From Bedellia somnulentella (taxonomy: Eukaryota; Arthropoda; Insecta; Lepidoptera; Bedelliidae), in the NCBI GenBank assembly GCA_963576735.1, contig OY755178.1, positions 868,001-932,000 of the forward strand: a DNA stretch of 64,000 bases. The letters run 5' to 3'. Shown here piece by piece: positions 28,577 to 63,228 of this stretch. The stretch's first letter is position 1. Every line of letters starts with the position of its first letter. Under the pieces are notes generated by a model. The model saw nothing but the letters and a program-made list of their open reading frames with translations, had not been told where the DNA came from and did not search any database. The translations under genes were made by a program, and so were the position numbers.

Positions 28577-29900
28577 TAATTTTATTTTATTTTATTTTAT
28601 TTTATTATCGTTGGGGGGCTTACAGCTAAATTTACAATATAAAATAATAACATAGGCAGAAATAGGCCAATTACAAGCTCCCACATATGCATAAAAATAA
28701 AGAACATCGAAAACAACAGAGAAACAGAAGGCTTAACTAAAAAAGGAATTTAACTAATTAATAAAAAAACAGCAAGAAAAATGCACCGAAACAAATGATG
28801 TGACAAACCAATATTCGGCAACAGCAACCGCTAATTTGAAATACTAAAATATTAAAAAAAAGTCATTTGCAAATGATCGCTTAATGTGAGCTATACTGTC
28901 ATGGAATAGATCCAAAGTGAGGTTATCGTTATGATAATTAAATTCATTGCAAGATCTGATAAGGTAGGCATTACGTCTGTAATTTGTTTTGGCTGGGGGG
29001 ACATGAAGCAAATCATTGCTACGCAGTTTTTTTGAAGGAACTCTCAAGCAAATTTTACTGAGGAGTTCAGGACAATCAATATTACCTTGAGCAATCTTGG
29101 CTAGTAGACAGATATCTGCTATATTCCTACGCAAATGAAGAGGCAAAAGGTGTTGAGCGATGCAACGCTTATTATAATCTAAGTATGGAAGTTTAAATTT
29201 GAAAGTCAGAAAACGGGTCTACTTTTTTTGAATTCGTTCGATTCTATCAGAGTATACGCCATAACAGGGATTCCAAACTTGAGACGCATACTCAAGGTGA
29301 CTGCGAACATAGGCACAATAGATTATTTTGACAGTTTTCATATTCTTAAAGTTCACAGATGATCGTATAACAAACCCAAGAGCTTTATATGCTTTATTAA
29401 CAATATGATCGACATGTAAATCAAATAATAATTTGCTATCATGAATGACTCCTAAATCTTTGGTATGAGTTAATTTTTCTAAATTTTGACCTTTAATTTG
29501 GTAATTAAATGAATTAATACTACGTTTACGTGAAAAATTAATAAAGAAACATTTAGAGGCATTAAGGTCGAGTTTGTTACGAAGGCAATAGTCATCAAGT
29601 CTGCTAATGTCCTCTTGTAATAGAGAAGCATCCTCAGAATTATTGACTGCTTTGAATATTTTCATGTCATCTGCAAACAATAGATATTTGGAATATAGAA
29701 AACATGATCCAATATCCTTAATGAAAATAACAAATAGCAAAGGGCCTAATAGTGAACCTTGGGGGACACCGGATGATATTTCCACCCATGAGGAAGTATA
29801 GCCGGATAGAACCACTGTATGTAATGAAATGATCTTTCAGAAGCCGAAATCTGAGGTAAAGCCAATAATATACAACTGTTAATAATAAAAGAGCATATGT
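28577..29900 (-). mobile_element. Jockey/CR1-type LINE, 5'-truncated
   Basis: The minus-strand element ends at about 28577 with a (TTTTA)n tail and starts inside the RT domain near 29815-29900. It contains the RT palm from 'GVPQGSLLGPLLF' and the C-terminal region. A different family from the LINE at 0-2.3 kb. Confidence 0.75.
28844..29815 (-). pseudogene. LINE reverse transcriptase fragment with one in-frame stop
   Basis: Two pieces in the same frame, 29219-29815 and 28844-29146, are separated by a single TAG at 29219-29221 and open sequence. The first holds 'GVPQGSLLGPLLFVIFIKDI', the active-site box 'LLFADDMKIF', 'HTKDLGVIHDSKL' and 'VRSHLEYASQVWNP'. The second holds 'LPLHLRRNIADICLLAKI', the usual C-terminal region. 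The 5' half including the first catalytic Asp is missing. One point mutation would explain the stop, so this copy is fairly young. Confidence 0.8.
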
Positions 29901-35484: not shown

Positions 35485-36890
35485 TTACTTACTTACTTAC
35501 TACGCTGGCTCGATGACCCAAAGTGAGTCTTGGCCTCCAATACGAGATTTCGCCATTTGTCTCGGTCTAGTGTGGTTTCTCGCCAATCGCTTGGTAGAAG
35601 CTCACGAAGATCCGCTTCTACCACATCACACCAGCGGTACCGCGGGCGTCCGACAGGTCTTCGTCCAGTTGGTCGACCCATGTACGCTTTTTTGACACCT
35701 CGATCTTCACCCATCCTTTCTAGGTGCCCAAGCCAGCGAAGTCTGTGGGCTTTGGTTTCCCCAAGGATGTTCGCATCAGCGAAAAGTTCTTCGACTTCAA
35801 AGTTCTTCAGCAGTCTCCATGTTCCATCCGACCTCTGTCTTGGCCCAAAGATTTTCCGGAGGATCTTTCTCTCGGCAACCAGGAGTTTACTTTCCTTTTT
35901 AAGCGTCAGTGTCCAAGCCTCACATCCGTACATGAGAATTGGCCTAATTACGGTCTTATAGATGCGTATCTTGGTGTTTCTACTGAGAAGTTTGGACACT
36001 AACACTTTATGCAGAGCAGCGCTACAACGCAGGGAGTTTTGAATGCGGATGTCGATCTCTTCGTCACGAGTATTGCTATCTGTGATGGTACAGCCTAGGA
36101 ATTTGAATTTTGCCACTCCATTGTATTGAGTATCTCCAACATTAAGTCCTTGACGATTTGTACGAGGAATTTTAAAACGTCTCATGTGAAGATACTCAGT
36201 TTTTCCGTGGTTGATCCTTAGACCGGCCTTCAGTGCTTCCGTTTCCAGAACTCTGGCGGATTCTTGTATTTCCTTACGGTTTTCTCCCAGTAATGCTAGG
36301 TCATCAGCGTAGCCAATTATTTTGTGTCTACCATTTAGTTGCACTCCAACATCTAGTGAATTCACTTTTCTGAGAGCGTATTCCAGCACTAAATTGAAGA
36401 GCATTGGAGACAAGGCGTCACCTTGCTTGAGACCCGTGACTACGGGAAATTCATCCGTCAAGTCCCCTTCTACTCGAACTCGCATCCTACTATCCGTTGT
36501 GGCTATCTGAATCATGTCCATTAACTTTTTGGGAATATTGAAGTTCCTCAATATTGTGAATAGCGCACTTCGGTCAATGCTGTCGTACGCTTTGGCAAAA
36601 TCCACAAACAGTATATGGATGCTTTGAGCGTATTCCCACTTCTTCTCCATCAGTTGTTTAAGGAGGAAGATCTGATCTATAGTACTGCGGTTTGGTCGAA
36701 AGCCGCACTGGTAATCACTAATGATAACTTCTGCATATGGTTCCAGTCTCTTGAGCAGAACATAGGACAATATTTTGTACGCTGTAGGTAGCAAAGCAAT
36801 TCCACGATAGTTTGAGCACTTCTTTTTTGATCCCTTCTTATGAATTATATATTCCCTTTCCTTCAAGACGAAGATTGAATATAAAGTGAC
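35485..36890 (-). mobile_element. RTE-like LINE with (TAAG)n tail, 5'-truncated
   Basis: The minus-strand element ends in a (TAAG)n microsatellite at 35486-35502, immediately after the ORF stop, so there is almost no 3' UTR. The 5' end is cut within the region just before the RT. It differs from the (TATG)n-tailed RTE family elsewhere in the window. Confidence 0.75.
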
Positions 36891-36914
36891 ATATAAATGG
36901 AAGCCTCTAAACAC
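35493..36914 (-). CDS. Reverse transcriptase, 473 aa (LINE ORF without endonuclease)
   Basis: The intact frame covers the whole RT and C-terminal region: 'CSNYRGIALLPTAYKILSY', 'YQCGFRPNRSTIDQIF', 'ILFVDFAKAYDSID' (first catalytic Asp), 'GLKQGDALSPMLFNLVLE', and the box 'IGYADDLALLGE' (YADD, both Asp present). The RTE-type C-terminus follows: 'RPILMYGCEAWTL', 'AHRLRWLGHLERMGEDRG', 'DRDKWRNLVLEAK'. The first ~25 residues before 'IHKKGSKKKCSNYRG' are probably flanking DNA or damaged sequence. With no endonuclease it cannot integrate in the usual way, but the RT frame has no stop or frameshift, so the insertion is recent. Confidence 0.85.
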   Translation of the reverse strand: MFRGFHLYVTLYSIFVLKEREYIIHKKGSKKKCSNYRGIALLPTAYKILSYVLLKRLEPYAEVIISDYQCGFRPNRSTIDQIFLLKQLMEKKWEYAQSIHILFVDFAKAYDSIDRSALFTILRNFNIPKKLMDMIQIATTDSRMRVRVEGDLTDEFPVVTGLKQGDALSPMLFNLVLEYALRKVNSLDVGVQLNGRHKIIGYADDLALLGENRKEIQESARVLETEALKAGLRINHGKTEYLHMRRFKIPRTNRQGLNVGDTQYNGVAKFKFLGCTITDSNTRDEEIDIRIQNSLRCSAALHKVLVSKLLSRNTKIRIYKTVIRPILMYGCEAWTLTLKKESKLLVAERKILRKIFGPRQRSDGTWRLLKNFEVEELFADANILGETKAHRLRWLGHLERMGEDRGVKKAYMGRPTGRRPVGRPRYRWCDVVEADLRELLPSDWRETTLDRDKWRNLVLEAKTHFGSSSQRSK

Positions 36915-41204: not shown

Positions 41205-41666
41205 CACGGTTGTGTCATATTTTTGTAAATTGGCAACACCGACAGCGTGCCTTCACCTGTCAATTTATGAATGTCAAGAGGAGTTTGATGACTAATAAAT
41301 AAAGAATAAATAAAGGAAAGAAAAATTTCGACACAGGCGGGGATCGAACCCGCGACCTCGGGTAAACGCCCCGGACGCTCTGCCAACTGAGCTACCGTGT
41401 CAGTTGGCTGCCAGTGCGAAATTCTTCTATCCTTTATTTCGTTTCCTTTATTTATTCTTTATTTATTAGTAATAATCCCCACATGAGGTTTTCATGAACA
41501 AAAAGATTTGAATTAGGAGTTTGATGGTTGGTTTTGGGGGGAGATGTGAGAGGATCTTTATGTTATCGATGCAACTGTTGAATCTTGTGATCAATGCTTG
41601 AATTAATGTAAATAGTAATTTAAATTAGTAAAAGTATTTATATTAAGTATTAGTCGTTTTTCTTCA
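41205..41666 (+). mobile_element. 3' end of an unidentified LTR retroelement, copy 1 (split by SINE-C)
   Basis: Shared with 61552-61770: 'GTAAATTGGCAACACCGACA', a polypurine tract 'TTTTGGGGGGAGA' and a 122-bp LTR-like unit TGTGAGAGG...TTTTTCTTCA at 41545-41666 (TG...CA ends). A SINE-C insertion divides it at 41289-41513. No pol coding remains, so the family cannot be named. Confidence 0.55.
41290..41513 (-). mobile_element. SINE-C insertion with 12-bp duplication and foldback layout
   Basis: Flanked by AGGAGTTTGATG at about 41278-41289 and 41514-41525. It holds a reverse tRNA-like part with a good cloverleaf layout (acceptor GACACGG/CTGTGTC, D-arm 'GCTCAGTTGGCAGAGC', T-arm 'GCGGGTTCGATCCCCGC'), then a forward copy of the SINE-C tail. 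The two tail copies are inverted relative to each other. The uninterrupted target is visible at 61.6 kb. Confidence 0.8.
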
Positions 41667-42445: not shown

Positions 42446-42449
42446 CAAG

Positions 42450-42678
42450 TAAAAGTCAGTAATATTTAAGTATAATGTATTCGAAAGAAAATAATTTTAC
42501 GTCACGTATTTATGGCAAAATTTAGCACACGTCACAGGTTAAGGTTAGTAGATCACGGACGACTGACGCCGGAGTCGACACTGTGCGACGACGCCCCTCG
42601 CCCCCTGGCGGGATTCAACAGGACTACGAAGAACCAATCACAGCGCTCCACTCCGTATGAAGTCAATTGATGCTTTCA
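42450..42678 (-). repeat. LTR retrotransposon 1, 3' LTR
   Basis: 229 bp, minus-strand TGAAAGCATC...CTGACTTTTA. Compared with the 5' LTR it has an extra GTTAAG-type 6-bp duplication ('AGGTTAAGGTTAG' on the plus strand). No good polypurine tract precedes it ('AGGATGGTCGAC'). Confidence 0.85.
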
Positions 42679-42769
42679 GTCGACCATCCTGATACTGCTG
42701 AACGCCCCGGACAGCTCTTCTTCGATGATAACTGATCAGCAAGGAAACCTCTTAAAGTTTACCCTAAAT

Positions 42770-43140
42770 AAATCACTTCTTAAAGTAATTAATAAAAGCA
42801 GAACCTCTTAAAGTTCTTTTTTTTATCTTTAGATTACCTCTTAAGGTGGATTAATATGAAAATAAGAACCTCTTAAAGTCCTCTTAGTTTACCTCTTAAG
42901 GTAGATTAATATGGAAAAAAAAAAGAACCTATTAAGTACTTTTAGACTACCTCTTAAGGTAGATTAATATGAAAAGAAGAACCTCTTAAAGTCCTCTTAG
43001 ATTACCTCTTAAGGTGGATTAATGTATAAGAAGAAGCTCTTAAATTCTTTTAGATTACCTCTTAAGGTAGATTAATATGAAATAAAGAACCTCTTAAAGT
43101 CCTTTAAGACTACCTCTTAAGGCAGATTATGAATACTAAA
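42770..43140. repeat. Tandem repeat (~52-60 bp, about 6 units) inside LTR element 1
   Basis: Units follow the pattern 'AACCTCTTAAAGTCC', 'TTAGATTACCTCTTAAGG', 'TAGATTAATATGAAA'. They lie in the element's 3' untranslated part, between pol stop and 3' LTR. Confidence 0.75.
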
Positions 43141-43701
43141 AGAATAAATAAATCAAGGCTTCCACATTAACGAATCAAGAATTTATCTCGACAATCAAGA
43201 CTTCAGACAGTCTGTTATGGTCCACCTCTTAAGGTCTCCAACTGCGCTAATGGTCCAACCTCATCCTAATGGGTCCTCACTACGCAGTTCGGTTCACTAT
43301 TAAATTAATAATAGTATCTCCGAATTTTGTGGTCCGCTTCGCAAGCCTTCACAAATCACCATCTTAAGGGTGGCATGCATGCTTTGTACTAATAATACTC
43401 TTTTAGAGTAAAACAATTAATTAGGCCAATCAATCACAATTTAATGTATTACAATGTCAAACAAATGGTTTTCTTAATACCAAAGTAACACAACAATCAG
43501 GAAATAAACATGAATAACCATTATGGTTAAAAACAAAACGATTCATACATAATCAAAACAAAATGGTTTTCTCAATACCATTGTCACAAAATCAATATGG
43601 AAATAAACAGAAATAACATACATAATGTTAATTATTTTTCAATATCCATCAAATATGTTTTTTTTTTAATCAGAAACAAATCAATTATAACAAATCAGTT
43701 T

Positions 43702-45453
43702 TTAATCTGAATCTATTTCTGAGACACAGGAAAACAATTTAAGTTTATCTCTAGCCAAAACATTCTCATATGAGCGACCACTTCTATTAGTAGATTTGAT
43801 GAGATATCTATCGTGCGGAAGCACTTTAATAATAACAAATGGACCGTCATAACGCGACACCAATTTACCACTTCTTAACCCTTTCTTAAACACTTTTCGT
43901 TGGGCAAGAACTAACTGCCCAATTTTAAAAGGTGGTTCAGTTCGCCTTTTACGATCGAATGATTGTTTCGATTGCTGAGCAACTGTTTGCAATCTAGTGA
44001 CAGCCTTTTCTCGGAGTCCATCTAAACAGTCCGATCTGACGGTCGTAACTATATCACCGGCCAAGCGAGGCCGAAAACCGTATAATAATTCTAATGGCGA
44101 TTTACCGGTCGAACTATTAATATTGGAATTTAATCCTAATTGAACTTTAGGAATATAAAATTCCCAACTATTTTGATCATCACCAACGTAGGCCACGAGA
44201 GCATCCAATATAGTACGATTGTATCGCTCTATCTGTCCGTTGGCCCGAGGACTAGCCACGGCATTCATAATATGTTTGATCTGACGCTCGACACAATATT
44301 TTTTAAACTCATGACAGTCAAAGGCTTTTCCACGATCGCTTACAATCCGGCTCGGTAACCCAAATGTTTTCATAAACAAATCCAAAGTTTTAAGTACGTT
44401 AGCGCAACTAGTATCGCGTACTGCCTCAATCCATATAAACTTTGTAAACGAATCTATAATAGCAAAAATATACATTTTGCCAGAGGGACTTTTGCAAAAT
44501 GGGCCAAGGTGATCAACGTGTACGGTATGAAATGGAACTGGTACTTTTTCTATTGGATGTAATAGACCAACCAGACGACCCGTTGGTTTTTTAGCATATT
44601 GACATGAAATACAGCCTTTAACATATTTTTGAATGAAACGTCGCATGTTCCCGAACCAGTATTTACTTTTAATACTTTCATATGTTTTGTTAAAATTACC
44701 ATGCGCATTATTATCGTGGAAAGACTGTAAAATTGACCACCGACATTGCTTCGGCACGACCACCTTATGTGTATCATTAACTTTTCGAAATAAAATACCC
44801 TTATCAATGACATAATCTACAGCTAAACCCTTTAAATTATTATTAGACAATTCATCACGCAACTGGGCAATAGTTGCAGTTATGGCCTCGTCATCACGTT
44901 GCAAACTTTCAACGAGATCTGTTTGTGTGCAGCGCATCACACTACCGATCGGGTTCCGACTTAACGCATCTACGTGACTCATAGACTTTCCGGCGCGATA
45001 TTCAACATCAAAGTCAAAATTTTGCACTTCTAACCACCACCGTGCGATGCGTGGAGATTGATCTCGTTTCGTCCAAGTCCATCGTAATGCATTACAATCG
45101 GTGACTATAACAAATTTAATACCACTTACATATATCCTAAATTTTTGCAAACTCATTACAACCGCCATAGTTTCAAGTTCGTAACTATGGTACTTTTGTT
45201 CCGATAACGTAGTTTGTCTACTGGCGTACGCAATAGGTTTCCATACACCGTCAGATTGTTTTTGAAGGAGAATGCCGCCTAAACCTATTTTTGAGGCATC
45301 CGTGTGGATCTGTGTCTCATAATCTGCATTAAATAAAGCTAATACAGGTCGACTAATTAAAGTATTTTTTATTCGATTAAACGCTTGTTGCTGCACCTCA
45401 CCCCAAACCCATGGTTGATCTTTTTTTGTGAGCGCAGTGATACATACATACAT
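43702..45453 (-). pseudogene. gypsy-type pol, RNase H and integrase part
   Basis: After the SINE break the frame continues from about 45432: RNase H ('IHTDASKIGLGGILLQKQ', 'FVIVTDCNALRW', 'HVDALSRNP'), an integrase zinc finger of the HHCC type ending 'CISCQYAKKP', and the integrase core with 'FHTVHVDHLGPF' (D), 'SRIVSDRGKAFD' (D) and 'ANGQIERYNRTI' (E), all three catalytic residues present. The C-terminus has 'GPFVIIKVLPHDRYLIK' and no chromodomain. The listed start lies in SINE DNA and is not real. Confidence 0.85.
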
Positions 45454-48400
45454 ACATACATATACTCACGGCTATAATTCCCTAGAAGGGGTAGCCAGAG
45501 CCAAGGAATTATAAATTCCTCAGCCACTTTTGGAAGTTTACTGGGGAATACCGCAGTGATAGGTTGTGCTATTATAGCAAAACCTTTTACAAATTTTCTA
45601 AAATAATTAGCCAAACCCATAAACTGTCTACATTGATGGACATTCATTGGTACAGGAAAATCACGTACAGCATCAATTTTATGCTTCGCAGGTTTTACTT
45701 GACCGTCACAGACTTCATGACCTAGGTACTCAATACGTGGAACTAAAAATGAACATTTGTCAATCCTAAGTTTCATGTTTGATTTTCGTATCTTTTCTAA
45801 CACATTTTTTAAACGACTCAACGCATCAGAATAATTTTCCGCGTAAACCAAAATATCGTCGAAAAATGCCGTAGCACACTCAAATTTCAAAGGCCCTAGT
45901 ACGTCATCGATAGCTCTTTGAAACACAGCTGGCGCATTAGCGAGTCCGAAACTCATTCGTGTGTATTGGAAGTGCCCATCGGGTGTTACAAACGCCGTAT
46001 ATTGCTTACTATCGTCTTCTAACTGTATACAAAAGTAGGCGGATAAAACGTCGAGACATGAAAATACACGTTGTTTTGCCAAACGATCTAGTTGATCTTG
46101 TATAAGCGGCATTGGGTAACGCTCTTTTTTCGTAATTTTATTCAACGCCCTATAATCAACACACATACGTTTCTCGCCTGTTTTCTTAGGCACAAGGAGA
46201 ACAGGGCTAGCATAAGATGAATTTGAAACTTCAATAATACCCTTCTTTAACAAATCTTGCGTAATAGTGCGTACATATTCGCGATCCGCAATTGACATAC
46301 GATAAGGACGATAATAAATGGGTTTATTGTCTGTGAGCTCAATTTTCATTTTTACGTTGCATTTGCCTATTGTTTGCCCGCACTCAGAAAAACAATCGGA
46401 AAAATCTTTTAATAAATGTTCTAACTCTAACCTCACGGAAGGTTCCAAATCGCTACCAATCTCATACTTGCATTCCACATCACATTTTTTAATAGCTCGT
46501 ACCATGCACTCACTACTTGGTAAATTAATTGTTTTAGTACCTAAATTAATAATTTTAATGAATACGTGACCGTCTCTAACTTGTGCACTTTGCTTAGGTA
46601 TAATTAACTCGTGACGGGGTTTCAAATGTTCCGATTGCGGTATGGTAACAGTACCGTCAAAATCAAGACACGATAATACTATTTTATTTACGCCAGGTAA
46701 TAGTTGCGAGTTTTCGATCATTTGTAATCGAACACGCTCGGGCTCCTCGTCAATATAAGGCAATTGTGATAAATAATTTGCATTGTATATTTTAAGAGAT
46801 AGGGGTGTCTTAATAACATACACATTGGGATAATCAGTAAAAGGTTGGCCAATAATGATACCTACATCTTGCGCTCCATCGGGTACTAAATAAGCCTTTA
46901 CACCTTCGCACGTAGCCTCGTCCGCCGTAATGTTTATAACTGTTTCCGCGATTGGTGTGATTTGCGACCCCCCGAATCCCTTTATAACACTATTAAATGA
47001 TAGAGGCTGTAGGTGTAATTTTAATTGTCTCGCCAAAGACTCCGTTATTGTGACACAAGAACTACCGAAGTCAATAAATGCCTCTGCACTATGTCCATTC
47101 ACCGCAACTGTCATATAATACTTTGAACTAGTATCGCCTGAATTTTTCATTAAATTAATCTTTTCATTATGGTTTGAAGAACTTGCATTTCGACCTTTTA
47201 ACTTTAAACATTCATCCTTAATATGCCCTAGTTTATTGCAGTAAGAACATTTACGCATTTTTGTAAAGCAATTATTTTTACTATGCCCTTTCCTATTACA
47301 AAAAGTACATGTGATATCAGAGTATGTGTTTTTCTCGCGAATTTTATAGGTACAACGCGCAGACACATGACCACGCCTCTTACACACTCTGCATATCATT
47401 CGATCTGGCCCTGAACTATTATTACTAGCCGAACCTAAATTTTGTTTAGGATTCATAAAAACCCTTGTATTCGATTGAAGCGACGACAAGTAATTTAACA
47501 ATGTGCACGGATCGCGGCAACCCGCGGAAATAGCACCGATCTCAACTAGTTCGCTACCAATCGTACCAACAATCGCCTCTGTAATTAAAGATGGCGACAA
47601 GCAACAAGCATTACCTAAAGCTAACTTATCATAATAAAATTGAATATAGTCCATATCAAACGGTCTAACAATATTCACTAAATCACGCAACATATTCAGT
47701 TTACTTTTATGGGATGGGAAAGCTATGATTAATTTTGACTTAAACTCAATCCATGACAGATTAATGTCCTGCAATTGATCATACCAACGCCGAGCATAAC
47801 CCTTTAATTTTGAAGAACAATTAAATATTAAAGTTTTCTCATCCCATCCATACATTCTAGATATCCCTTCGACCTTTCGAAGCCAAATGTCCATGGTAAT
47901 TAATGAAGTTTTAGGATCGAATTCGGGAATCGGATCGCTTCGACCAACATAACGTAAACTAGTATTGCTAAAAGTGTTATCTACATACGCAAAGTCCAAG
48001 GATGGAGTTGTCTCGGCGCCATTCGTGACGGCGGCATTCAACATACCCATACCAGTAGAACTACCGGAAGTGGTGTTCTGCGCATGCGCGGTGTGCTCGA
48101 CGCCTGCTGTGGAGGCGCTACCCAGGGGCAACATGGCGGCAGCGGCAGTTTGACTCGCTGTGGGTGTTTGCGGCGTAGTGGTGGTACATGTTGGAACATG
48201 CAGCGACAACTGAGGCAACTGAGCGGCACTCACAGTCGCCTGCAGCTCTCTCTCCGATCTTGCAGCCGATACCAGAGCAGCCGGTTGCACCGACGTCGTT
48301 TTTTCTCGATTTGAGGGCAATGGCGGCGTAACAATTCCATCATCAGTATTGCTCCTCGATGGAGACAACCGCACCGACGTGCCCTCATCCAATGGCGCCG

Positions 48401-48524
48401 CTGACTTAACATGTTCTTCCAAAATGGCTAAACGTTTTAAAAGGCGCCGGTTTTCTATCTCAGCCAAAAGTCGACGTCGTAATTTTTCTTCACGCTTTTC
48501 TTTTTTCTTTTTGTGCGACCCCAT
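45369..48524 (-). pseudogene. gypsy-type gag-protease-reverse transcriptase, one frame
   Basis: Starts at an ATG about 50 bp inside the 5' LTR. Order: a Lys/Arg-rich start (1-45), a gag core around 200-340, three CCHC zinc knuckles ('CRVCKRRGHVSARC', 'CTFCNRKGHSKNNC', 'CSYCNKLGHIKDEC'), protease around 'EAFIDFGSSCVTI', and RT with 'MCVDYRALNKIT', 'MSFGLANAPAVFQRA' and the active site 'AFFDDILVYAEN' near residue 885. Gag and pol share one frame with no frameshift. The protease reads DFG where DT/SG is expected, possibly a damaging change. The last ~60 residues are SINE-encoded and out of frame. Confidence 0.87.
45443..45551 (-). repeat. SINE-B 3' fragment inserted in pol
   Basis: 109 bp: (CATA)n, 'CTCACGGCTATAATTCCC', to 'GGAAGTTTACTGGGGAATA'. 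It is flanked by CGCAGTGATA at 45433-45442 and 45552-45561. Insert plus duplication is 119 bp, a +2 shift, which exactly explains why the two pol frames differ. Confidence 0.92.
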
Positions 48525-48576
48525 AATAATAAATGTAAAACCACACTACAACACACAAATCGTCCCACTTCTGAAC

Positions 48577-48799
48577 TAAAAGTCAGTAATATTTAAGTAT
48601 AATGTATTCGAAAGAAAATAATTTTACGTCACGTATTTATGGCAAAATTTAGCACACGTCACAGGTTAGTAGATCACGGACGACTGACGCCGGAGTCGAC
48701 ACTGTGCGACGACGCCCCTCGCCCCCTGGCGGGATTCAACAGGACTACGAAGAACCAATCACAGCGCTCCACTCCGTATGAAGTCAATTGATGCTTTCA
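48577..48799 (-). repeat. LTR retrotransposon 1, 5' LTR
   Basis: 223 bp, with the same ends as the 3' LTR; the right flank is CAAG. It supplies promoter and start for the minus-strand gag-pol at 48524. Confidence 0.85.
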
Positions 48800-49294: not shown

Positions 49295-51372
49295 AAAGGT
49301 AAGTTTCTCTCGCTACCTATTTATTTAATGCAATGTAGTGATGGGTACGCTTCCCTCGCTTCTCATTTATTCTATACAATGTAGTGACTGGTACGTTTCC
49401 TTCGCTACTTATTTATTTAATATAATCTAGTGATGGGTACGTTTCCCTCGCTTCTCATTTATTTTATACAATGTAGTGACTGGTACGTTTCCTTCGCTAC
49501 TTATTTATTTAATATAATCTAGTGATGGGTACGTTTCCCTCGCTTCTCATTTATTTTATACAATGTAGTGACTGGTACGTTTCCTTCGCTACTTATTTAT
49601 TTAATATAATCTAGTGATGGGTACGTTTCCCTCGCTTCTCATTTATTTTATACAATGTAGTGACTGGTACGTTTCCTTCGCTACTTATTTATTTAATATA
49701 ATCTAGTGATGGGTACGTTTCCCTCGCTTCTCATTTATTTTATACAATGTAGTGACTGGTACGTTTCCTTCGCTACTTATTTATTTAATATAATCTAGTG
49801 ATGGGTACGTTTCCCTCGCTTCTCATTTATTTTATACAATGTAGTGACTGGTACGTTTCCTTCGCTACTTATTTATTTAATATAATCTAGTGATGGGTAC
49901 GTTTCCCTCGCTTCTCATTTATTTTATACAATGTAGTGACTGGTACGTTTCCTTCGCTACTTATTTATTTAATATAATCTAGTGATGGGTACGTTTCCCT
50001 CGCTTCTCTTTTATTTTATACAATGTAGTGACTGGTACGTTTCCTACGCTACTTATTTATTTAATATAATCTAGTGATGGGTAAGTTTCCCTCGCTTCTC
50101 ATTTATTTTATACAATGTAGTGACTGGTACGTTTCCTTCGCTACTTATTTATTTAATATAATCTAGTGATGGGTACGTTTCCCTCGCTTCTCATTTATTT
50201 TATACAATGTAGTGACTGGTACGTTTCCTTCGCTACTTATTTATTTAATATAATCTAGTGATGGGTACGTTTCCCTCGCTTCTCATTTATTTTATACAAT
50301 GTAGTGACTGGTACGTTTCCTTCGCTACTTATTTATTTAATATAATCTAGTGATGGGTACGTTTCCCTCGCTTCTCATTTATTTTATACAATGTAGTGAC
50401 TGGTACGTTTCCTTCGCTACTTATTTATTTAATATAATCTAGTGATGGGTACGTTTCCCTCGCTTCTCATTTATTTTATACAATGTAGTGACTGGTACGT
50501 TTCCTTCGCTACTTATTTATTTAATATAATCTAGTGATGGGTACGTTTCCCTCGCTTCTCTTTTATTTTATACAATGTAGTGACTGGTACGTTTCCTTCG
50601 CTACTTATTTATTTAATATAATCTAGTGATGGGTAAGTTTCCCTCGCTTCTCATTTATTTTATACAATGTAGTGACTGGTACGTTTCCTTCGCTACTTAT
50701 TTATTTAATATAATCTAGTGATGGGTACGTTTCCCTCGCTTCTCATTTATTTTATACAATGTAGTGACTGGTACGTTTCCTTCGCTACTTATTTATTTAA
50801 TATAATCTAGTGATGGGTACGTTTCCCTCGCTTCTCATTTATTTTATACAATGTAGTGACTGGTACGTTTCCTTCGCTACTTATTTATTTAATATAATCT
50901 AGTGATGGGTACGTTTCCCTCGCTTCTCATTTATTTAATACAATCTAGTGACGGGTACGCTTCCCTCGCTTCTTATTTATTTTATACAATGTAGTGACCG
51001 GTACGTTTCCCTCGCTACTTATTTATTTAATACAATCTAGTGATGGGTACGCTTCCCTCGCTACTTATTTATTTAATATAATCTAGTGATGGGTAAGTTT
51101 CCCTCGCTTCCCATTTATTTTATACAATGTAGTGACTGGTACGTTTCCTTCGCTACTTATTTATTTAATATAATCTAGTGATGGGTACGTTTCCCTCGCT
51201 TCTTATTTATTTAATACAATCTAGTGACGGGTACGCTTCCCTCGCTTCTTATTTATTTTATACAATGTAGTGACCGGTACGTTTCCCTCGCTACTTATTT
51301 ATTTAATACAATCTAGTGATGGGTACGCTTCCCTCGCTACTTATTTATTTAATGCAATGCAATGACGGGTAG
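49295..51372. repeat. 46-bp satellite arranged as 92-bp dimers
   Basis: About 45 monomers of 46 bp alternate between two types, 'TTTCCCTCGCTTCTCATTT' and 'TTTCCTTCGCTACTTATTT', each ending 'TAGTGA', 'TGGGTACG' or 'CTGGTACG'. The centre is almost perfectly uniform and the edges (before 49400 and after 50930) are diverged. Two rare variants, 'CTTCTCTTTTA' (50001, 50553) and 'GGGTAAGTTT' (50079, 50631), recur exactly 552 bp (six dimers) apart. Confidence 0.95.
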
Positions 51373-51913
51373 AGAGAGTGTGTATGAATATAACATAAAC
51401 ATGAACAATCACGCCGAATATATATGAATATATTATTTCTGTAGACCTATTTTATTCATTATAGTTGACGATTACTTGTTCAAATAATAAGCTACTTAAG
51501 AAAATGAATGTATAAATACTAGTAGTTGAATTACATAACGATACTAATTTTATTTGAAAGGCTATAATTGCAACAACTAGTAACTAATACTAAAAATATT
51601 GTAGGTACATTTTATTGCCAAGTAATTTGTTAGCTAAGAATGGTGACTGAATTGTTTTCTTGTTACCGAATTGTTTTTATATTTACCTGCTTTTCTAATT
51701 ATTATCATTACCGTTTTTTTCTATTTATCTTGCTGGATCATTATGCGTCATTATTATCACTGTTGAAAAGATCATGAACTTCATTTTATTTTAATTTATG
51801 TTTATTTGAGTAAGATTATTAACGTAAACGTCTGAATACATTAATATACTTTGCTACTTGCTTATGACATCTATGAAGAATAGTTTACGTTTCGGATATT
51901 TTAAACATTTCAG
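51373..51913. other. AT-rich stretch before the exon candidate
   Basis: Contains a SINE-A tail scrap ('CATAAACATGAACAATCACG') at 51391. No gene is supported. Confidence 0.35.
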
Positions 51914-53227: not shown

Positions 53228-53406
53228 ATATATGTAAAGAAAACTATAGTTTCCTTTATTTGAATTTACACGCGCATATAGCAACTCTTTGGTAGTTTAG
53301 AGTTTTTAAGAAAGAGTAAACTGTGACGGTCATGACGCACGCTTTTGGTTAATGTCAAATAAGAAAAATTTCTCTTTACAAAGAATAAGTTAATATCTAA
53401 TTTTAA

Positions 53407-53441
53407 ATAAAATAAGAAATCGACACCGGAATAATAACATT
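53407..53441 (+). promoter_or_regulatory. Proposed LTR core promoter (TATA-like to start site)
   Basis: TATA-like 'ATAAAATAAG' lies 25-34 bp before base 53441. That base was chosen because the 12 bases starting there (TTAATGTCGTTT) are exactly complementary to the bases next to the LTR end at 53604-53615. No direct evidence of transcription. Confidence 0.45.
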
Positions 53442-53522
53442 TAATGTCGTTTCTTTGATTTACAGGTATGTAAGTTAATGTTTGTTTGATTTGTTTCATG
53501 ATTTGTTTCTTAGATTAACTGA

Positions 53523-53528
53523 AATAAA
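53523..53528 (+). terminator. Polyadenylation signal in LTR (AATAAA)
   Basis: AATAAA in 'CTGAAATAAATC', with a GT-rich stretch about 25 bp downstream. The same sequence in the 3' LTR (58180-58185) would be the one used. Confidence 0.55.
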
Positions 53529-53603
53529 TCTTTGATTTACAGAGAAACTCAATGTGTTTGATTGACGGTGCCATATATCAAGCCACTATAAAATAATATT
53601 ATA

Positions 53604-53615
53604 AAACGACATTAA
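53604..53615 (+). promoter_or_regulatory. Putative self-priming primer binding site
   Basis: AAACGACATTAA, directly after the repeated LTR sequence, is the exact reverse complement of TTAATGTCGTTT at 53441-53452 in the same LTR. No TGG-type tRNA primer site is visible between the LTR and the gag ATG at 53627, only 23 bases away. This is the layout of Tf1/sushi-type elements, where the folded 5' end of the RNA primes reverse transcription. Confidence 0.6.
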
Positions 53616-53626
53616 CTGTCACAAAA

Positions 53627-54739
53627 ATGGAGAAACTAAAATTTACTTTTCAAATTAAACCAACAGTGGACGGAAAGTCAAACTTCATTGCCATAACCTC
53701 AATTGCCACACTAGATGACAAAGTTTACCTGATTCCTGAAGAGTATCAAGCAATATCACTTCATAAACATATTCAAACCACGAAAACATACGTTACATTA
53801 AAAAGTACATTGAAAAAGAGATATCAAACTAGAAATGTTTGGATAAAAACAACAGAAGAAATTTTAAAAACATATGTCGATGAGACTGGAAACATGATTT
53901 TTCAGGACCAATTTCTAGAAGAAATTAACCAAGAACAGTCACCAGCTGTGAGTAAAATGACATTAGAGGATCCTATAGTGAAGATTTTGGAAAAATTGGT
54001 TGAAGACAAACAGAATGAAGAAAAGAAGAGTATGAAAAAGTTAGCTGAAAGATTTGTGATTGAAAAATTTAGCGGAAGGAATTCAAGAGCATGTCAGTGG
54101 ATGGAAGTATTCGAAAAAGAATGTGAAAGATTTAATATTGTAAAAGAGGAAGAAAAGATTGAAATTCTCAGACTTTTTCTTGATAAAACATGCATAGATT
54201 GGTACTCCTCCATGATGATAAAGTTTGGATTACAATCTGAGTGGTCAGAATGGAAATCAAGTTTTTTACAAACATACACCAGTAAAGGTTGGACTGACAG
54301 CAAATATGCTTTGACTTTCAAGTACCAAACAGGATCTTTGGTAGAATATGCAGTGAAAAAAGAAAGACTTTTATTGGAGATAAGAAAAACAATGGATGAA
54401 GGGACCCTAATTGACATAATCGCAGTCGGCTTACCAGATTTTATAACAGATAGGATTAACAAAGAAGAAATAGTTCATGCTAAAGACTTATTCAATGAAC
54501 TTGGCAGACTAGAACACTTGGTGCAAAAACGAAGAATTATAAAAAGAAAAGAAGATAGTAAACCGGTTAGAGAAAAATGTAATATCTGTGATAAATTGAA
54601 TAAAGGAGACCGCTACCACCCAGAAGATTCTTGTTGGTTCAAACCAAAATTGAATACGGAAAAAGATAAAAAACAGATAAAACTTACCAATAATTCAGAG
54701 TTGGAATGTGAATTGCAGTACGAAGACCAAAAAAACTAA
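53627..54739 (+). CDS. gag, 370 aa (LTR retrotransposon 2)
   Basis: Starts at the first ATG after the LTR ('AAAATGGAGAAAC'). It holds a gag capsid-like core around residues 135-310 with 'FSGRNSRACQWMEVFEKEC', 'WYSSMM' and 'EWKSSFLQTY', and one unusual zinc knuckle at about 318-336, CNICDKLNKGDRYHPEDSC, with spacing CX2CX9HX4C instead of CX2CX4HX4C. The C-terminus is Lys/Glu-rich. It ends in TAA right after the slippery heptamer A AAA AAC (54730-54736), so most ribosomes would stop here and a fraction would enter pol. Confidence 0.85.
   Translation: MEKLKFTFQIKPTVDGKSNFIAITSIATLDDKVYLIPEEYQAISLHKHIQTTKTYVTLKSTLKKRYQTRNVWIKTTEEILKTYVDETGNMIFQDQFLEEINQEQSPAVSKMTLEDPIVKILEKLVEDKQNEEKKSMKKLAERFVIEKFSGRNSRACQWMEVFEKECERFNIVKEEEKIEILRLFLDKTCIDWYSSMMIKFGLQSEWSEWKSSFLQTYTSKGWTDSKYALTFKYQTGSLVEYAVKKERLLLEIRKTMDEGTLIDIIAVGLPDFITDRINKEEIVHAKDLFNELGRLEHLVQKRRIIKRKEDSKPVREKCNICDKLNKGDRYHPEDSCWFKPKLNTEKDKKQIKLTNNSELECELQYEDQKN
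54730..54736 (+). promoter_or_regulatory. Programmed -1 frameshift site A AAA AAC
   Basis: Gag codons CAA AAA AAC TAA contain the X XXY YYZ heptamer in the correct phase, immediately before the stop. Slipping back one base gives CTA ATA GTG and runs straight into the pol frame, which is open upstream to overlap gag. A downstream stem or pseudoknot was not evaluated. Confidence 0.75.
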
Positions 54740-54741
54740 TA

Positions 54742-57700
54742 GTGCCGCCATTGATCAAGATAAAATTACTACTAAATAAAAATATTGAAGTATCAGGGAT
54801 CTATGACTCTGGATCTAATGTGTCATTGATAAACTCAAAGATATTAAAGATAAAGCCAAACAAAGGCACTCTTTCAAATGATACTAATCTAAAAACGATT
54901 AATGGCGTCAAAAAAGCTATCGGAATAATTTCACTGGACATAGCCATCTTTGATATTGAGAAAAAAATGAATGTTTTTGTGATAGATAACGAAAATTTTG
55001 ATTATGACTTTTTAGTGGGACTAGATTGTATACAAGAATTTCATCTAGTTCAAGACGAAAATCTGAAAATTCATCAAAAATTACCTACACAAAACAAGGA
55101 AAGAGTTTCTAAGGAAACAAATACAGATATTGATTCTAAGGAATTAAAAATGGATAATATCATAAACTACAATGAAAGTTTTAAAACAGAAGACTTAAGA
55201 ATTTGTATTAATCACTTGAGTTTTGAGGAACAGACAATAATTGATGACTTAATAACAGAAAACCAGTCAGTGTTTGCGACGGACAAATATGACATTGGAA
55301 AGGTAAAAGGTTATGAAGCACACATCGATCTACAAGTAGAAAAATATTGCAGTAAAAGACCATATCGTTGCACAGTGGAAGACAAGAAAGAAATCGAAAG
55401 CCAAATAGCAAAACTACTGGAAAAGAATATAATAGAAGAATCATATAGCCCATTTGCAGCGCCTGTTACATTGGCCTATAAAAGAGAAGAAAACAGAAAA
55501 TCAAGACTGTGTATAGACTTCAGAGATTTAAATAAGATTGTTGTACCACAGTCACAGCCCTTCCCGCTCATCGAGGACTTAATAGTAAAAACAAGAAATT
55601 GTAAATATTTTTCAACGCTGGACCTTAATTCTGCTTTTTGGTCCATACCACTGCGTGTCACAGATAGACACAAAACGGCATTTGTGACACAAGAAGGTCA
55701 TTACCAATGGACCTGTCTACCATTTGGATTGAAGACCGCTCCAGCCATATTCCAAAGGATAATGTGTAATATTATACGGAAGCATAATCTTGGAGAGTTC
55801 ACAGTATGTTTTATTGATGACATTCTGTTGTTTTCGAAGTCATTCTCGGATCATATAAGATATCTGAAGCAGTTATTTCAAGCAATTCAAAGCGAAGGTA
55901 TGAAACTAAAATTCTCTAAATGCACATTTGCAGCCGATTCAGTAAAATACTTGGGGCATGTAATCCAGAATAATTCAGTCAGACCTCTGAAAGATAATTT
56001 GATATCAATTAAAAATTTCCCGATTCCAAAAACTCCAAAAAATGTGAGACAATTTTTAGGAAAGATAAACTTTTACCATAAATATGTGCCAAATATTGCA
56101 ATAAAATTAGAACCACTACATAATCTTTTGAGAAAAGGACAACCTTTCATCTGGACTGACAAATGTCAAGAGTCATTTGAAGAAATGAAACATATATTAT
56201 GTTCCCAACCAATATTAACAATTTATGACCCAAACTTACCTATTCACATATACACAGATGCCAGCATATTAGGAGTAGGAGCAGTTCTGAAACAAAAACA
56301 AAAAAACAACGAAGAAAAACCTGTAGCCTACTTTTCAAAGAAATTAAATGAAGTGCAAAAAAGGAAGAAGGCTGTGTATCTGGAATGTCTGGCAATTAAA
56401 GAATGTGTTCAGTATTGGCAACACCTACTAATAGGCAGAAAATTCACAGTCTTTACAGATCACAAGCCACTGGAAAATATGAACATAAAATGTAGAACAG
56501 ACGAAGAGCTAGGTGACTTAACTCATTATTTATCGCAATATGATTTCCAAATTAAATATTCTCCAGGAAGATATAATGTTGAAGCAGATTGCCTGAGCAG
56601 AAACCCGGTTCTCGAACCAGAAGAAAACTTAGAAGAACAGCTAAAAATAGTAAACATGATAACAATAGAAGATATTTTACAAGATCAAAATCAAAATGAA
56701 TATATACAAAGCAAGAGAGATAAGTTATATACAAAAAACAATGTGTATTACAAGAAAGTAAGAGAAAAAGAAAAAATTATTATATCAGAGAAATTAAGCA
56801 TAGAGCTCATGAAGAAAATACATTCAGATCTAAGCCATATCGGAACTAAACAAATGCAAAAAATGATAAGCACTGTGTATACAGCAGAGAACATGACGAA
56901 AAACATAAAAATAATTTGTGAAAGCTGCACAATATGCATAAAGAATAAATCAAGAGGAAAAAATAAATATGGATTAATGTCACAATTGGGGCCTGCCAAA
57001 AAACCATTTCAGATATGTTCCATCGATACCATTGGAGGCTTTGGAGGATCCCGATCAACAAAGAGATATTTACACCTATTATCAGATCATTTTACAAGGT
57101 ATGCATACATACTAACATCCAGTAGACAAAATGCAAATGATTTTATCAAACTTATAAAAAGTTGTACAGAATGTGATGACATAGAAGTGATACTCTCGGA
57201 CCAATACCCAGGTATCAACTCAAGAGATTTCAAGAGTTTTTTAGATGAGAAGAATATACAAATCATATTTACAGCAGTAAACTCACCTTTCTCGAATGGT
57301 TTGAATGAGAGACTAAACCAAACGCTGGTCAACAAAATCAGATGTAAAATAAATGAACAAGATACAAGAATGGCATGGACGACTGTGGCACAAAATTGTG
57401 TAAAGAAATACAACGAGACAGTGCACACAGTTACTGGATATGCTCCGAAATACTTACTTTATGGCACAGATGTCACTATTTTGCCAAATGAGCTAAAACA
57501 GGAAAGAACTAAACATGATTTAATCCAAGATAGGAGAAGAGCTCTAGAAAACTCAATCAAATCACATAATTATAACAAGACAATTTATGATAAGCATCGA
57601 AAATATATAGACTTCAACGTAGGAGACATGGTTTTTGTGGAAAACGGGAACAAATTAAACAGGAAAAAACTTGATGAACTGAAAATAGGACCCTACAAGA

Positions 57701-57813
57701 TTATAGAAAAAATATCTACATCAATATACAAGATAAACACTGATCACAAGAGATCAGAGTCTAACTACTTCCACATATCGAAGCTCACACCGGCTCCTGC
57801 TATCTACGTGTGA
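54742..57813 (+). CDS. pol (protease, RT, RNase H, integrase), LTR retrotransposon 2
   Basis: 1023 codons in the -1 frame relative to gag. The listed GTG is only the first possible start; real entry is likely by frameshift at 54736. Protease 'GIYDSGSNVSLIN' (Asp22); RT 'RLCIDFRDLNKIV', 'LPFGLKTAPAIFQR' and active site 'VCFIDDILLFSK' near residue 370; RNase H 'IYTDASILGVGAVLKQ' and 'DHKPLENMN', with 'EADCLSRNP'; integrase HHCC ('HSDLSHIG', 'CESCTICIKN') and core 'CSIDTIGGFGG' (D), 'VILSDQYPGIN' (D), 'FSNGLNERLNQ' (E). All catalytic residues appear present and no stop interrupts the frame. There is no chromodomain. Ty3/gypsy order RT-RH-IN. Confidence 0.9.
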   Translation: MPPLIKIKLLLNKNIEVSGIYDSGSNVSLINSKILKIKPNKGTLSNDTNLKTINGVKKAIGIISLDIAIFDIEKKMNVFVIDNENFDYDFLVGLDCIQEFHLVQDENLKIHQKLPTQNKERVSKETNTDIDSKELKMDNIINYNESFKTEDLRICINHLSFEEQTIIDDLITENQSVFATDKYDIGKVKGYEAHIDLQVEKYCSKRPYRCTVEDKKEIESQIAKLLEKNIIEESYSPFAAPVTLAYKREENRKSRLCIDFRDLNKIVVPQSQPFPLIEDLIVKTRNCKYFSTLDLNSAFWSIPLRVTDRHKTAFVTQEGHYQWTCLPFGLKTAPAIFQRIMCNIIRKHNLGEFTVCFIDDILLFSKSFSDHIRYLKQLFQAIQSEGMKLKFSKCTFAADSVKYLGHVIQNNSVRPLKDNLISIKNFPIPKTPKNVRQFLGKINFYHKYVPNIAIKLEPLHNLLRKGQPFIWTDKCQESFEEMKHILCSQPILTIYDPNLPIHIYTDASILGVGAVLKQKQKNNEEKPVAYFSKKLNEVQKRKKAVYLECLAIKECVQYWQHLLIGRKFTVFTDHKPLENMNIKCRTDEELGDLTHYLSQYDFQIKYSPGRYNVEADCLSRNPVLEPEENLEEQLKIVNMITIEDILQDQNQNEYIQSKRDKLYTKNNVYYKKVREKEKIIISEKLSIELMKKIHSDLSHIGTKQMQKMISTVYTAENMTKNIKIICESCTICIKNKSRGKNKYGLMSQLGPAKKPFQICSIDTIGGFGGSRSTKRYLHLLSDHFTRYAYILTSSRQNANDFIKLIKSCTECDDIEVILSDQYPGINSRDFKSFLDEKNIQIIFTAVNSPFSNGLNERLNQTLVNKIRCKINEQDTRMAWTTVAQNCVKKYNETVHTVTGYAPKYLLYGTDVTILPNELKQERTKHDLIQDRRRALENSIKSHNYNKTIYDKHRKYIDFNVGDMVFVENGNKLNRKKLDELKIGPYKIIEKISTSIYKINTDHKRSESNYFHISKLTPAPAIYV

Positions 57814-57877
57814 AGAGTGTATGCCGGGAACATAAACCTCATTGTTTATATTCACTTTTACTCATTGTTTATCTCTT

Positions 57878-57889
57878 TTGGGGGGGAGA
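57878..57889 (+). promoter_or_regulatory. Polypurine tract of LTR retrotransposon 2
   Basis: 'TTTTGGGGGGGAGA' ends directly at the 3' LTR start (TGTAAAG, 57890). It is the usual plus-strand primer site. Confidence 0.8.
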
Positions 57890-58260
57890 TGTAAAGAAAA
57901 CTATAGTTTCCTTTATTTGAATTTACACGCGCATATAGCAACTCTTTGGTAGTTTAGAGTTTTTAAGAAAGAGTAAACTGTGACGGTCATGACGCACGCT
58001 TTTGGTTAATGTCAAATAAGAAAAATTTCTCTTTACAAAGAATAAGTTAATATCTAATTTTAAATAAAATAAGAAATCGACACCGGAATAATAACATTTA
58101 ATGTCGTTTCTTTGATTTACAGGTATGTAAGTTAATGTTTGTTTGATTTGTTTCATGATTTGTTTCTTAGATTAACTGAAATAAATCTTTGATTTACAGA
58201 GAAACTCAATGTGTTTGATTGACGGTGCCATATATCAAGCCACTATAAAATAATATTATA
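57890..58260 (+). repeat. LTR retrotransposon 2, 3' LTR
   Basis: Reads identical to the 5' LTR over its whole length, including a 77-codon minus-strand open frame present in both copies. Followed by TATATATT, in which the target duplication lies. Confidence 0.85.
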
Positions 58261-58740
58261 TATATTTTACTTTAAAAGATTTGTTATGCTCATTTCTCAG
58301 ATTTTATTTACATTCTTCAGAAAAAATTAAAGCTACGAGTACTTTTAAACATATATTAGTTATAACATTTCCAAAAGCTCTTTTGCAAGGGAGTTTTCAC
58401 AAATATTTACCAAAATAATTATAGTACAATATTGGGTTTTTATAAAAAAAAAAAAACTTGGTAAATAAACTAAATATTTATATAAATCGGAAGCTATACT
58501 AGCAATCAAAATACAGCTATATGTTCTGTAAGCTTGTCGAATAAGTGTTCGCTGTCATGTATTAACCCTAAATCACTTGTTTTCGCAACTCTAGTTATCT
58601 GGATGTGTCTTAGACTATTGTTATCTTAAATTTTCGTTTTATATAAAGATAAATTGCGAGTTAAAGTCACAAAACAAATAACTTTTTGAGACATTCAAAT
58701 CGACCTTTTGATTTCACATATCCTGGCAGGATCGCCAAAT
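58261..58740. other. AT-rich stretch, no gene seen
   Basis: No supported ORF. A SINE-B scrap ('GGTGACCAGAGCCAAGG', 'TAAATTCCTCAGCC') follows at 58770-58810. Confidence 0.3.
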
Positions 58741-61336: not shown

Positions 61337-61355
61337 TGCCGAATGTCATATTTTT

Positions 61356-61491
61356 CACAGCTCGATGCTCGCCTCAATGAAAATTAGTTGCTTATGCTTA
61401 AATGTTTTTAGATCAATACAAATCACAGCTCGATGCTCGCCTCAATGAAAATTAGTTGCTTATGCTTAAATGTTTTTAGATCAATACAAAT
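61356..61491. repeat. 68-bp perfect tandem duplication
   Basis: 'CACAGCTCGATGCTCGCCTC' to 'TAGATCAATACAAAT' occurs twice in a row (61356-61423, 61424-61491). The block sits inside an insertion flanked by the 18-bp repeat GCCGAATGTCATATTTTT (about 61338 and 61548). Confidence 0.85.
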
Positions 61492-62819: not shown

Positions 62820-63228
62820 ATACGAATTGTAACACTAAGCACATAAATATAGAATAGAATAGAACTCATAATGGTACTCATCACGTACCTCCTCCTCACA
62901 GTCCATATATGTCCCCACCAAGGGGCTCCAGCCCACCCTACATAGGGCGATCTGGCCACAGTCCACCACGCCGGCCAATTGCGGGCTGGCAGACCAACGA
63001 CCACCACCGCAACAGTAGCCGGGAGCGACGGCCCAACGTGCCCTCGGAAGCACGGAATCATCTTAATTCTCGGATAGTCAGGTGATTCAAGCCTGCAATA
63101 TCCCTCCAAACTCGGTCAAATCTTACAAATCAAATTTGTAAGGTGATCACCCCCCCGGGGATCGAACTCGAGACCTCCGCACCCGAAACCAAGCGCTCAA
63201 CCGCGAGGCCATGGAGGCAGTCATCACA
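62820..63228 (-). repeat. Lepidopteran tRNA-derived SINE
   Basis: The minus strand begins with a tRNA-like head: 'TGGCCTCGCGGTTGAGCGC' (A box) and 'TCTCGAGTTCGATCCCCGG' (B box). The core follows ('TCCGAGGGCACGTTGGGCC', 'GGCTACTGTTGCGG'), then a GC-rich body and an A/T end near 62820. The core phrase is one I recognise from many moth SINEs and supports the taxonomic placement. The two minus-strand frames across it (62783-63109 and 62835-63053) are SINE sequence, not genes. Confidence 0.75.

What the first reader, a model, noticed from the sequence alone, without database searches (positions are those of the whole stretch)
53233..53627. LTR retrotransposon that appears to prime its own reverse transcription
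Seen: the 12 bases right after the 5' LTR (53604-53615, AAACGACATTAA) are the exact reverse complement of 53441-53452 inside the LTR. The latter lies 25-34 bp after a TATA-like box and 82 bp before AATAAA, where the transcript start (R) should be. No TGG-type tRNA primer site is present in the 23 bp before gag. Known: in Tf1 of fission yeast and in sushi-like elements the first ~11 nt of the RNA pair with a site next to the LTR and prime cDNA. Inferred: this insect Ty3/gypsy element, with no chromodomain seen, uses the same trick. A 12-nt exact match in this position is unlikely by chance.
Basis: partly seen in the sequence, partly recalled or inferred. Interest (0 to 1): 0.86.

Follow-up and report, generated by a model that had tools for sequence, protein, structure and literature searches.

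The report
Self-priming retrotransposon with spliced-looking leader
This insect jumping gene appears to start copying itself into DNA with the first 11 letters of its own RNA instead of a borrowed cell RNA, and its ends carry a small intron-like stretch flanked by an exact repeat that could let it copy a spliced RNA and still restore the intron.

Summary
The element (53233-58260; 371-bp LTRs, 4-bp target duplication, gag and pol) is a young, multi-copy Ty3/gypsy family without a detectable chromodomain in a 549-Mb genome. The sequence at +1 after the 5' LTR is complementary to 53441-53452.

Of 15 related elements fetched from that genome (RT 70-80% identical), 13, in five families, have the same arrangement with other letters. 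Over six families primer and PBS pair in 65 of 66 cells and covary at four positions, consistent with an 11-nt primer.

A second feature was missed. The 9-13 nt after the primer end at a donor-like CAG|GT and recur before an acceptor-like CAG|A, 77-95 nt downstream. The repeat's right edge is the splice-like site; its left edge is the primer end (one shared T). Six elements in two families lack this stretch in both LTRs.

I infer that spliced leader RNA is the strong-stop template and that the repeat lets strand transfer restore the intron. No RNA was examined, deletion between repeats would give the same intronless LTR, and in natural intronless leaders the primer's 3' end folds preferentially onto exon 2.

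The parts
53233..53603 (+). 5' LTR, 371 bp (TGTAAAG...ATTATA)
   Evidence: identical to 57890-58260; ends set by 4-bp TSDs
53229..53232 (+). target-site duplication TATA, left copy
53401..53416 (+). TATA-like box
   Evidence: read by eye; AT-rich boxes also seen by eye upstream of the primer in the other five families
53442..53452 (+). self-primer, 11 nt (12 with T53441); proposed RNA 5' end
   Evidence: complementary to 53604-53614; in the six families it follows RRCNTT (read by eye)
53453..53465 (+). repeat copy 1 (CTTTGATTTACAG), end of proposed exon 1, followed by donor-like GTATGT
53466..53542 (+). proposed 77-nt leader intron (GT..AG) inside the LTR
   Evidence: junction without it found in both LTRs of four full-length copies
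53523..53528 (+). AATAAA poly(A) signal just upstream of repeat copy 2
53530..53542 (+). repeat copy 2 (CTTTGATTTACAG), ends at acceptor-like CAG|AG; its 3' LTR counterpart is the proposed landing site of the strong-stop cDNA
53604..53615 (+). self-complementary primer-binding site, +1 after the LTR
53627..54739 (+). gag ORF, 370 aa; A AAA AAC slippery site just before its stop
   Evidence: no Pfam family at E <= 0.001
54742..57813 (+). pol ORF (RT, RNase H, integrase with Tf2-type SH3 domain, no chromodomain found), in the -1 frame to gag
57880..57889 (+). polypurine tract GGGGGGGAGA next to the 3' LTR
   Evidence: read
57890..58260 (+). 3' LTR (primer site 58099-58109; repeat copies 58110-58122 and 58187-58199)
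   Evidence: positions by the offset of 4657
58261..58264 (+). target-site duplication TATA, right copy

Best explanation
A Ty3/gypsy retrotransposon of a non-chromodomain insect clade that primes minus-strand DNA with the first 11 nt of its own RNA. Transcription starts at about 53442. The 5' leader folds so that nt 1-11 pair with the site at +1 after the LTR; RNase H cuts after T53452 and the 11-mer primes. I further infer that the leader intron (53466-53542) is usually spliced from the template. The strong-stop cDNA then ends in the complement of CTTTGATTTACAG joined to exon 2. It lands on the second copy of that 13-mer, beside the poly(A) signal of the unspliced 3' LTR, and copies on through the intron, so the new LTR is complete. 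Each cycle would rewrite repeat copy 2 from copy 1, and the PBS from the primer; this explains why both pairs stay matched while the letters drift. Shown: the matching sequences, their covariation, the intronless copies. Inferred: transcript start, primer cleavage, splicing, strand transfer. My odds: self-priming 0.92; spliced template with intron restoration 0.6 (lowered from 0.65 when the fold of natural intronless leaders was looked at again).
For: (1) 13 of 15 related elements fetched carry a 10-11-nt exact complement next to the LTR end; per-family shuffle P 0.00025-0.0037. Over six families 65 of 66 cells pair, four positions show two Watson-Crick pair types, and 2 of 720 re-assignments of primers to PBSs do as well: the true one and, as two families have the same primer, their swap. 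(2) Two other gypsy elements of this genome do not show it: the minus-strand element at 42447-48799, no complement of 7 nt or more, and the 39% family at C97, with a TGG site and at most 7 nt of complement in the 450 bp upstream (its LTR ends were not found). (3) The repeat after the primer is exact in 11 of 14 leaders. In one representative of each of six families it extends exactly 1 nt into the primer and 0 nt past the splice-like site. (4) In one family the T-run length of the two copies agrees in 28 of 31 LTRs and 17 of 20 grouped elements, permutation P 2e-5, not corrected for descent; 2 copy-1 and 5 copy-2 hits had no partner and were left out. (5) Four window-family elements have both LTRs intronless at the junction, spacing 4580-4585 against 4657. 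Of their four 5' LTRs, one has no other change and three have different ones; one shares two SNPs with an intron-bearing copy, and the three of these elements included share no internal SNP of their own. Two elements of a second family show the junction in both LTRs (pattern only). Reversed-pattern controls: 0 in both. (6) The primer:PBS helix is in the minimum-energy fold of all six unspliced leaders, mean pair probability 0.49-0.93.
Against: No RNA data: start site, splicing and poly(A) site are unmapped. In three natural intronless leaders (L081-L083) only 8 of 12 primer nt pair with the PBS in the minimum-energy fold; the primer's 3' end pairs with exon 2 instead, and its last nt pairs with the PBS with probability 0.08. 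Thus the spliced RNA folded alone does not favour priming and would need help, while the unspliced leader of this family folds well. Because the intron is flanked by a direct repeat, deletion between repeats, or strand transfer to copy 1, gives the same intronless LTR as splicing. One copy has only its 3' LTR intronless, which looks like post-insertion deletion. Two of 15 elements fetched did not show the primer match: C300 (7-nt match by eye, decayed, 5' LTR not recognisable) and C9:1239216 (5' piece unrelated or N; its 3' LTR belongs to a known family). In one family (F57) the 11th pair is C/A. Three of 14 leaders have imperfect repeats. All families come from one genome, so covariation counts six lineages only.
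Confidence: 0.67

Rival explanations
1. Self-priming is real, but the genomic RNA is not spliced; the repeat serves something else (for example poly(A) choice or a U1-binding control), and intronless copies arise by deletion between the repeats.
For: Deletion between direct repeats explains the intronless copies equally well, including the single-LTR case. The unspliced leader folds well for priming, the natural intronless one less so. A donor upstream of a poly(A) signal in R suppresses 5' polyadenylation in foamy viruses, by a section heading independently of splicing (PMC3694450, abstract and headings).
Against: It does not explain why the repeat begins within 1 nt of the primer end and stops exactly at both splice-like borders in six of six family representatives, nor why the two copies change together. 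An unspliced RNA needs no such repeat for strand transfer.
Confidence: 0.27
2. The complementary pair is a leader stem for packaging or translation, and priming uses another, unseen RNA.
For: The stem is in the minimum-energy fold of all six unspliced leaders. The priming step itself was not observed.
Against: The site sits at +1 after the LTR in the families where the LTR end could be set, which is where the U5 end of the cDNA must start; the primer follows a shared RRCNTT. No TGG lies before gag.
Confidence: 0.05
3. A host tRNA, through an internal region as with half-tRNA primers, primes at this site and the LTR match is incidental.
For: The host tRNA set was not scanned (only two tRNA-like genes in the window), and offset tRNA sites without TGG are known (recalled).
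Against: Six different 11-nt PBS sequences in six families each match their own LTR best or equal best; a tRNA would not covary with the LTR.
Confidence: 0.03

Closest known systems
Tf1/sushi group of self-primed chromoviruses (Tf1, Tf2, Tj1, maggy, sushi-ichi, Tcn1)
   Same: PBS next to the LTR complementary to the RNA 5' end; primer of about 11 nt (Tf1's 11 nt is recalled); Ty3/gypsy pol; a -1 gag/pol frameshift is predominant in the group outside fission yeast (PMC10085805, passages)
   Different: No chromodomain found here; LTR ends TA rather than CA; no shared three-duplex 'pretzel' could be shown; a leader intron with repeat is not mentioned in the passages I read
Plant Ty1/copia TAR lineage, predicted self-primed
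   Same: Self-priming predicted from LTR complementarity outside chromoviruses (PMC6317226, passages)
   Different: A different superfamily; the same survey describes plant non-chromovirus gypsy elements as using tRNAs
Foamy viruses (and, recalled, HTLV/BLV) with a splice donor in R
   Same: Donor lies upstream of the poly(A) signal in the LTR (PMC3694450, abstract)
   Different: There it serves subgenomic RNAs (recalled) and poly(A) control; here an acceptor-like site also lies inside the LTR and the exon end is duplicated
Ty3 of yeast
   Same: Closest solved relative of pol: 7q5b, E 9e-120
   Different: Ty3 is tRNA-primed (recalled)

Membership tests
Ty3/gypsy (Metaviridae) | pol order RT - RNase H - integrase | tested here: met
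   Pfam hits in that order; best solved match Ty3
Self-primed LTR retroelements (mechanism class) | at least 10 nt complementary to the 5' LTR starting 0-5 nt after it (criterion of PMC6317226) | tested here: met
   12 nt here; 10-11 nt in 13 of 15 related elements
Self-primed LTR retroelements (mechanism class) | complementarity maintained by covariation across families | tested here: met
   65 of 66 cells, four covarying positions
Self-primed LTR retroelements (mechanism class) | primer is the 5' end of the RNA and is cut by RNase H | not testable with these tools
   needs 5' RACE and strong-stop mapping
Self-primed LTR retroelements (mechanism class) | no tRNA primer site | tested here: inconclusive
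   no TGG in 53604-53626, but host tRNAs were not scanned
Tf1/sushi group | chromodomain at integrase C-terminus | tested here: not met
   none at E <= 0.001; PF00385 in 0 of the 120 homologues listed (of 2719) in their precomputed domains
Tf1/sushi group | LTR ends CA (said of the fission-yeast elements in PMC10085805) | tested here: not met
   ends TTATA here; one of the six families ends TTACA
Tf1/sushi group | three-duplex 'pretzel' leader | tested here: inconclusive
   central duplex in all six unspliced folds; no shared flanking duplexes seen by eye
Tf1/sushi group | RT-IN phylogeny inside the group | not tested
   no tree was built; no named reference elements were at hand as sequence

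The most novel reading that the evidence does not exclude
A clade of insect Ty3/gypsy retrotransposons that combines self-priming with an intron inside its LTR. The spliced RNA is the reverse-transcription template, and a short repeat that copies the end of exon 1 to the end of the intron makes minus-strand transfer put the intron back in every cycle, so that two separate pairs of sequences (primer/PBS and repeat 1/repeat 2) are kept matched by templated copying.
Probability: 0.56. Interest if true: 0.92.

Novelty: new variant of a known kind. Interest (0 to 1): 0.86.

Why it matters
In the passages I read, self-priming is placed in Tf1/sushi chromoviruses, the related plant Tcn1 clade and one plant copia lineage. 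Finding it, with covariation, in a gypsy clade without a detectable chromodomain suggests an independent origin or a wider spread; pol relatives named from a moth, an ant and a beetle show that the clade is broad, though whether they share the feature is untested. The intron-restoring repeat would be a new answer to the puzzle of how an element that replicates through RNA can keep an intron inside its LTR. It would also give a searchable DNA signature for self-priming and for the exact strand-transfer point, testable in insect genomes and RNA-seq.

Tried and rejected
Chance: rejected through covariation. LTR end two nt later, as in retroviruses: rejected by TSDs. Position T53529 (next to repeat copy 2) looked like a mutation hotspot at the transfer junction: it is A in 9 and C in 2 elements, while the other 34 positions of the pattern show 2 single changes over 96 LTR hits. 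But internal SNPs show that 7 of the 9 A elements share one background, an eighth (C10) only in part, L025 not; of the two C elements, L045 shares none of it and L017, seen only to 54475, one SNP. I keep it as weak evidence only. Relatives outside this genome: viral contigs and genome contigs gave none. Print searches for an LTR intron or for insect self-priming (open-licence library only): no title or abstract start listed describes such a case, but most of those papers were not opened. Intronless junctions in the TGTCGTTT families: asked but did not complete. A host tRNA scan was not done, nor a tree.

Full report
THE ELEMENT. The finding lies in the 5' LTR of a Ty3/gypsy element, 53233-58260, on the + strand. 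The LTRs are 371 bp and identical. The insertion carries a 4-bp target duplication, TATA; 6 of the 7 copies with both flanks printed have a matching 4-bp duplication, which fixes the LTR end at 53603. gag (53627-54739) and pol (54742-57813) are open, joined by a -1 slippery sequence A AAA AAC at the gag stop (by eye). Pfam finds RT, RNase H, the integrase zinc-binding and core domains and a Tf2-type SH3 domain, and no chromodomain at E <= 0.001. The closest solved relative is Ty3. The window is G000:C9:868001-932000 of a 549-Mb genome. The 40 scored copies (of 120 candidates) of the LTR plus PBS stretch are 99-100% identical, 22 of them with the full score of an exact match, so the family is young. 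Pol relatives with a named source are from Lasius niger, Arctia plantaginis and Henosepilachna, so an insect host is likely; a moth or butterfly is my guess from the many large contigs.

THE OBSERVATION. The 12-mer at 53604-53615 is the exact reverse complement of 53441-53452 and starts at +1 after the LTR. Alone it was suggestive: 7 of 20,000 shuffled LTRs reach 12 nt, but 31 of 8143 sampled positions in this AT- and repeat-rich window also do.

COVARIATION. A search of the same genome with the RT piece scored 150 places (of 1938 candidates): 50 at 99-100% identity, 13 at 38-39%, two fragments at 92-94% and the rest at 61-80%. I fetched LTR-side pieces of 15 related elements at 70-80%. Thirteen carry a 10-11-nt exact complement between the sequence after the LTR and a site 139-165 nt upstream. 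The two that do not are a decayed copy (C300, 7 nt by eye) and one whose 5' piece is unrelated sequence and N. The 13 fall into five families; with the window that makes six. The PBS reads AAAC[A/G]ACA plus variable bases, and the LTR site changes with it: 65 of 66 cells are Watson-Crick pairs and four positions show two pair types. Only 2 of 720 re-assignments of primers to PBSs pair as well: the true one and the swap of two families with the same primer. In all six the primer is the 11 nt that follow RRCNTT, with an AT-rich box upstream (by eye). The helix is in the minimum-energy fold of each unspliced leader.

CONTROLS. Two other gypsy elements in this genome lack the feature. One is on the minus strand of this window (42447-48799), with no complement of 7 nt or more. 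The other is the 39% family at C97, with a TGG site and at most 7 nt of complement in the 450 bp upstream; its LTR ends were not found. The plant survey places self-priming in Tcn1-type chromoviruses and TAR copia elements, with plant non-chromoviruses on tRNAs (PMC6317226, passages).

THE MISSED PART: A REPEATED EXON END. In all six families the primer is followed by 9-13 nt (14 in one copy) ending in CAG, then GTATGT, GTAAGT, GTAAGC or GTGA. The same letters recur 77-95 nt downstream, ending in CAG followed by AG (AA in one family); AATAAA lies 1-10 nt before the second copy in a member of each family (by eye). The match is exact in 11 of 14 leaders; the letters differ between families. In one representative of each of six families the identity extends exactly one T into the primer and not one base past the splice-like border. 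In one family the T-run inside the repeat is 6/6, 7/7 or 8/8 in 28 of 31 paired LTRs and agrees in 17 of 20 grouped elements (permutation P 2e-5, not corrected for descent; unpaired hits left out: 2 and 5).

LOSS OF THE STRETCH. A pattern joining the two exon ends occurs at 9 places with up to 2 mismatches, 0 in the reversed control. Eight are the two LTRs of four full-length copies, spaced 4580-4585 bp instead of 4657. The ninth is a lone 3' LTR whose 5' partner keeps the stretch. Of the four 5' LTRs one has no other change, three have different ones, and one of these shares two SNPs with an intron-bearing copy, so the losses look recurrent. Two elements of another family show the same junction in both LTRs (pattern only). 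Loss in both LTRs means that it happened during reverse transcription or in a parent copy.

MODEL. Self-priming alone does not call for the repeat. If the leader is spliced before reverse transcription, the strong-stop cDNA ends in copy 1 joined to exon 2. Copy 2, lying beside the poly(A) signal of an unspliced 3' LTR, is the matching landing site that restores the whole LTR. The model predicts both borders of the repeat, and predicts that copy 2 is rewritten from copy 1 (and the PBS from the primer) in each cycle. Shown: sequences, borders, covariation, intronless copies. Inferred: RNA start, splicing, cleavage, transfer. Two things weigh against the second half. Deletion between repeats without splicing gives the same intronless product, though it does not explain the borders.

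COMPARISON. It works like Tf1 in its priming; it is not a Tf1/sushi member by the features tested (no chromodomain found, LTR end TA). Foamy viruses have a donor upstream of the poly(A) signal that controls the 5' poly(A) site (PMC3694450, abstract). I found no described case of an LTR intron restored by strand transfer in the searches named under Tried and rejected, within the limits stated there.

Noticed in passing
window 42447-48799 (-): A second gypsy-type element with 97% identical LTRs; its post-LTR sequence CAGAAGTGGGACG resembles an offset tRNA-Leu site (recalled, not tested).
   Followed up: partly
window 53529: The base next to repeat copy 2 is T, A or C among copies while the neighbouring 34 positions hardly vary; mostly one A subfamily plus other A and C cases.
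   Followed up: partly
window 54729: Three elements (L011; L020 = L038; L032) carry an extra A in the slippery run at the end of gag; open frames of 1405 aa are listed for L032, L038 and a further copy, C22:3966593.
   Followed up: no
L086-L087 (G000:C97): A 39%-related gypsy family with a TGG-type primer site and sequence after integrase that may be env-like (by eye).
   Followed up: no
window 49298-51495: 46-bp tandem repeat array, with alternate units more alike.
   Followed up: no
window 61355-61490: Exact tandem duplication of 68 bp.
   Followed up: no
window 561-2063, 29219-29815 (-), 35493-36914 (-): ORFs that look like non-LTR retrotransposon reverse transcriptases (read by eye).
   Followed up: no
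window 41328-41402 (-), 63147-63219 (-): tRNA-Asn and tRNA-Pro like genes by ARAGORN; could be real or SINE-derived.
   Followed up: no
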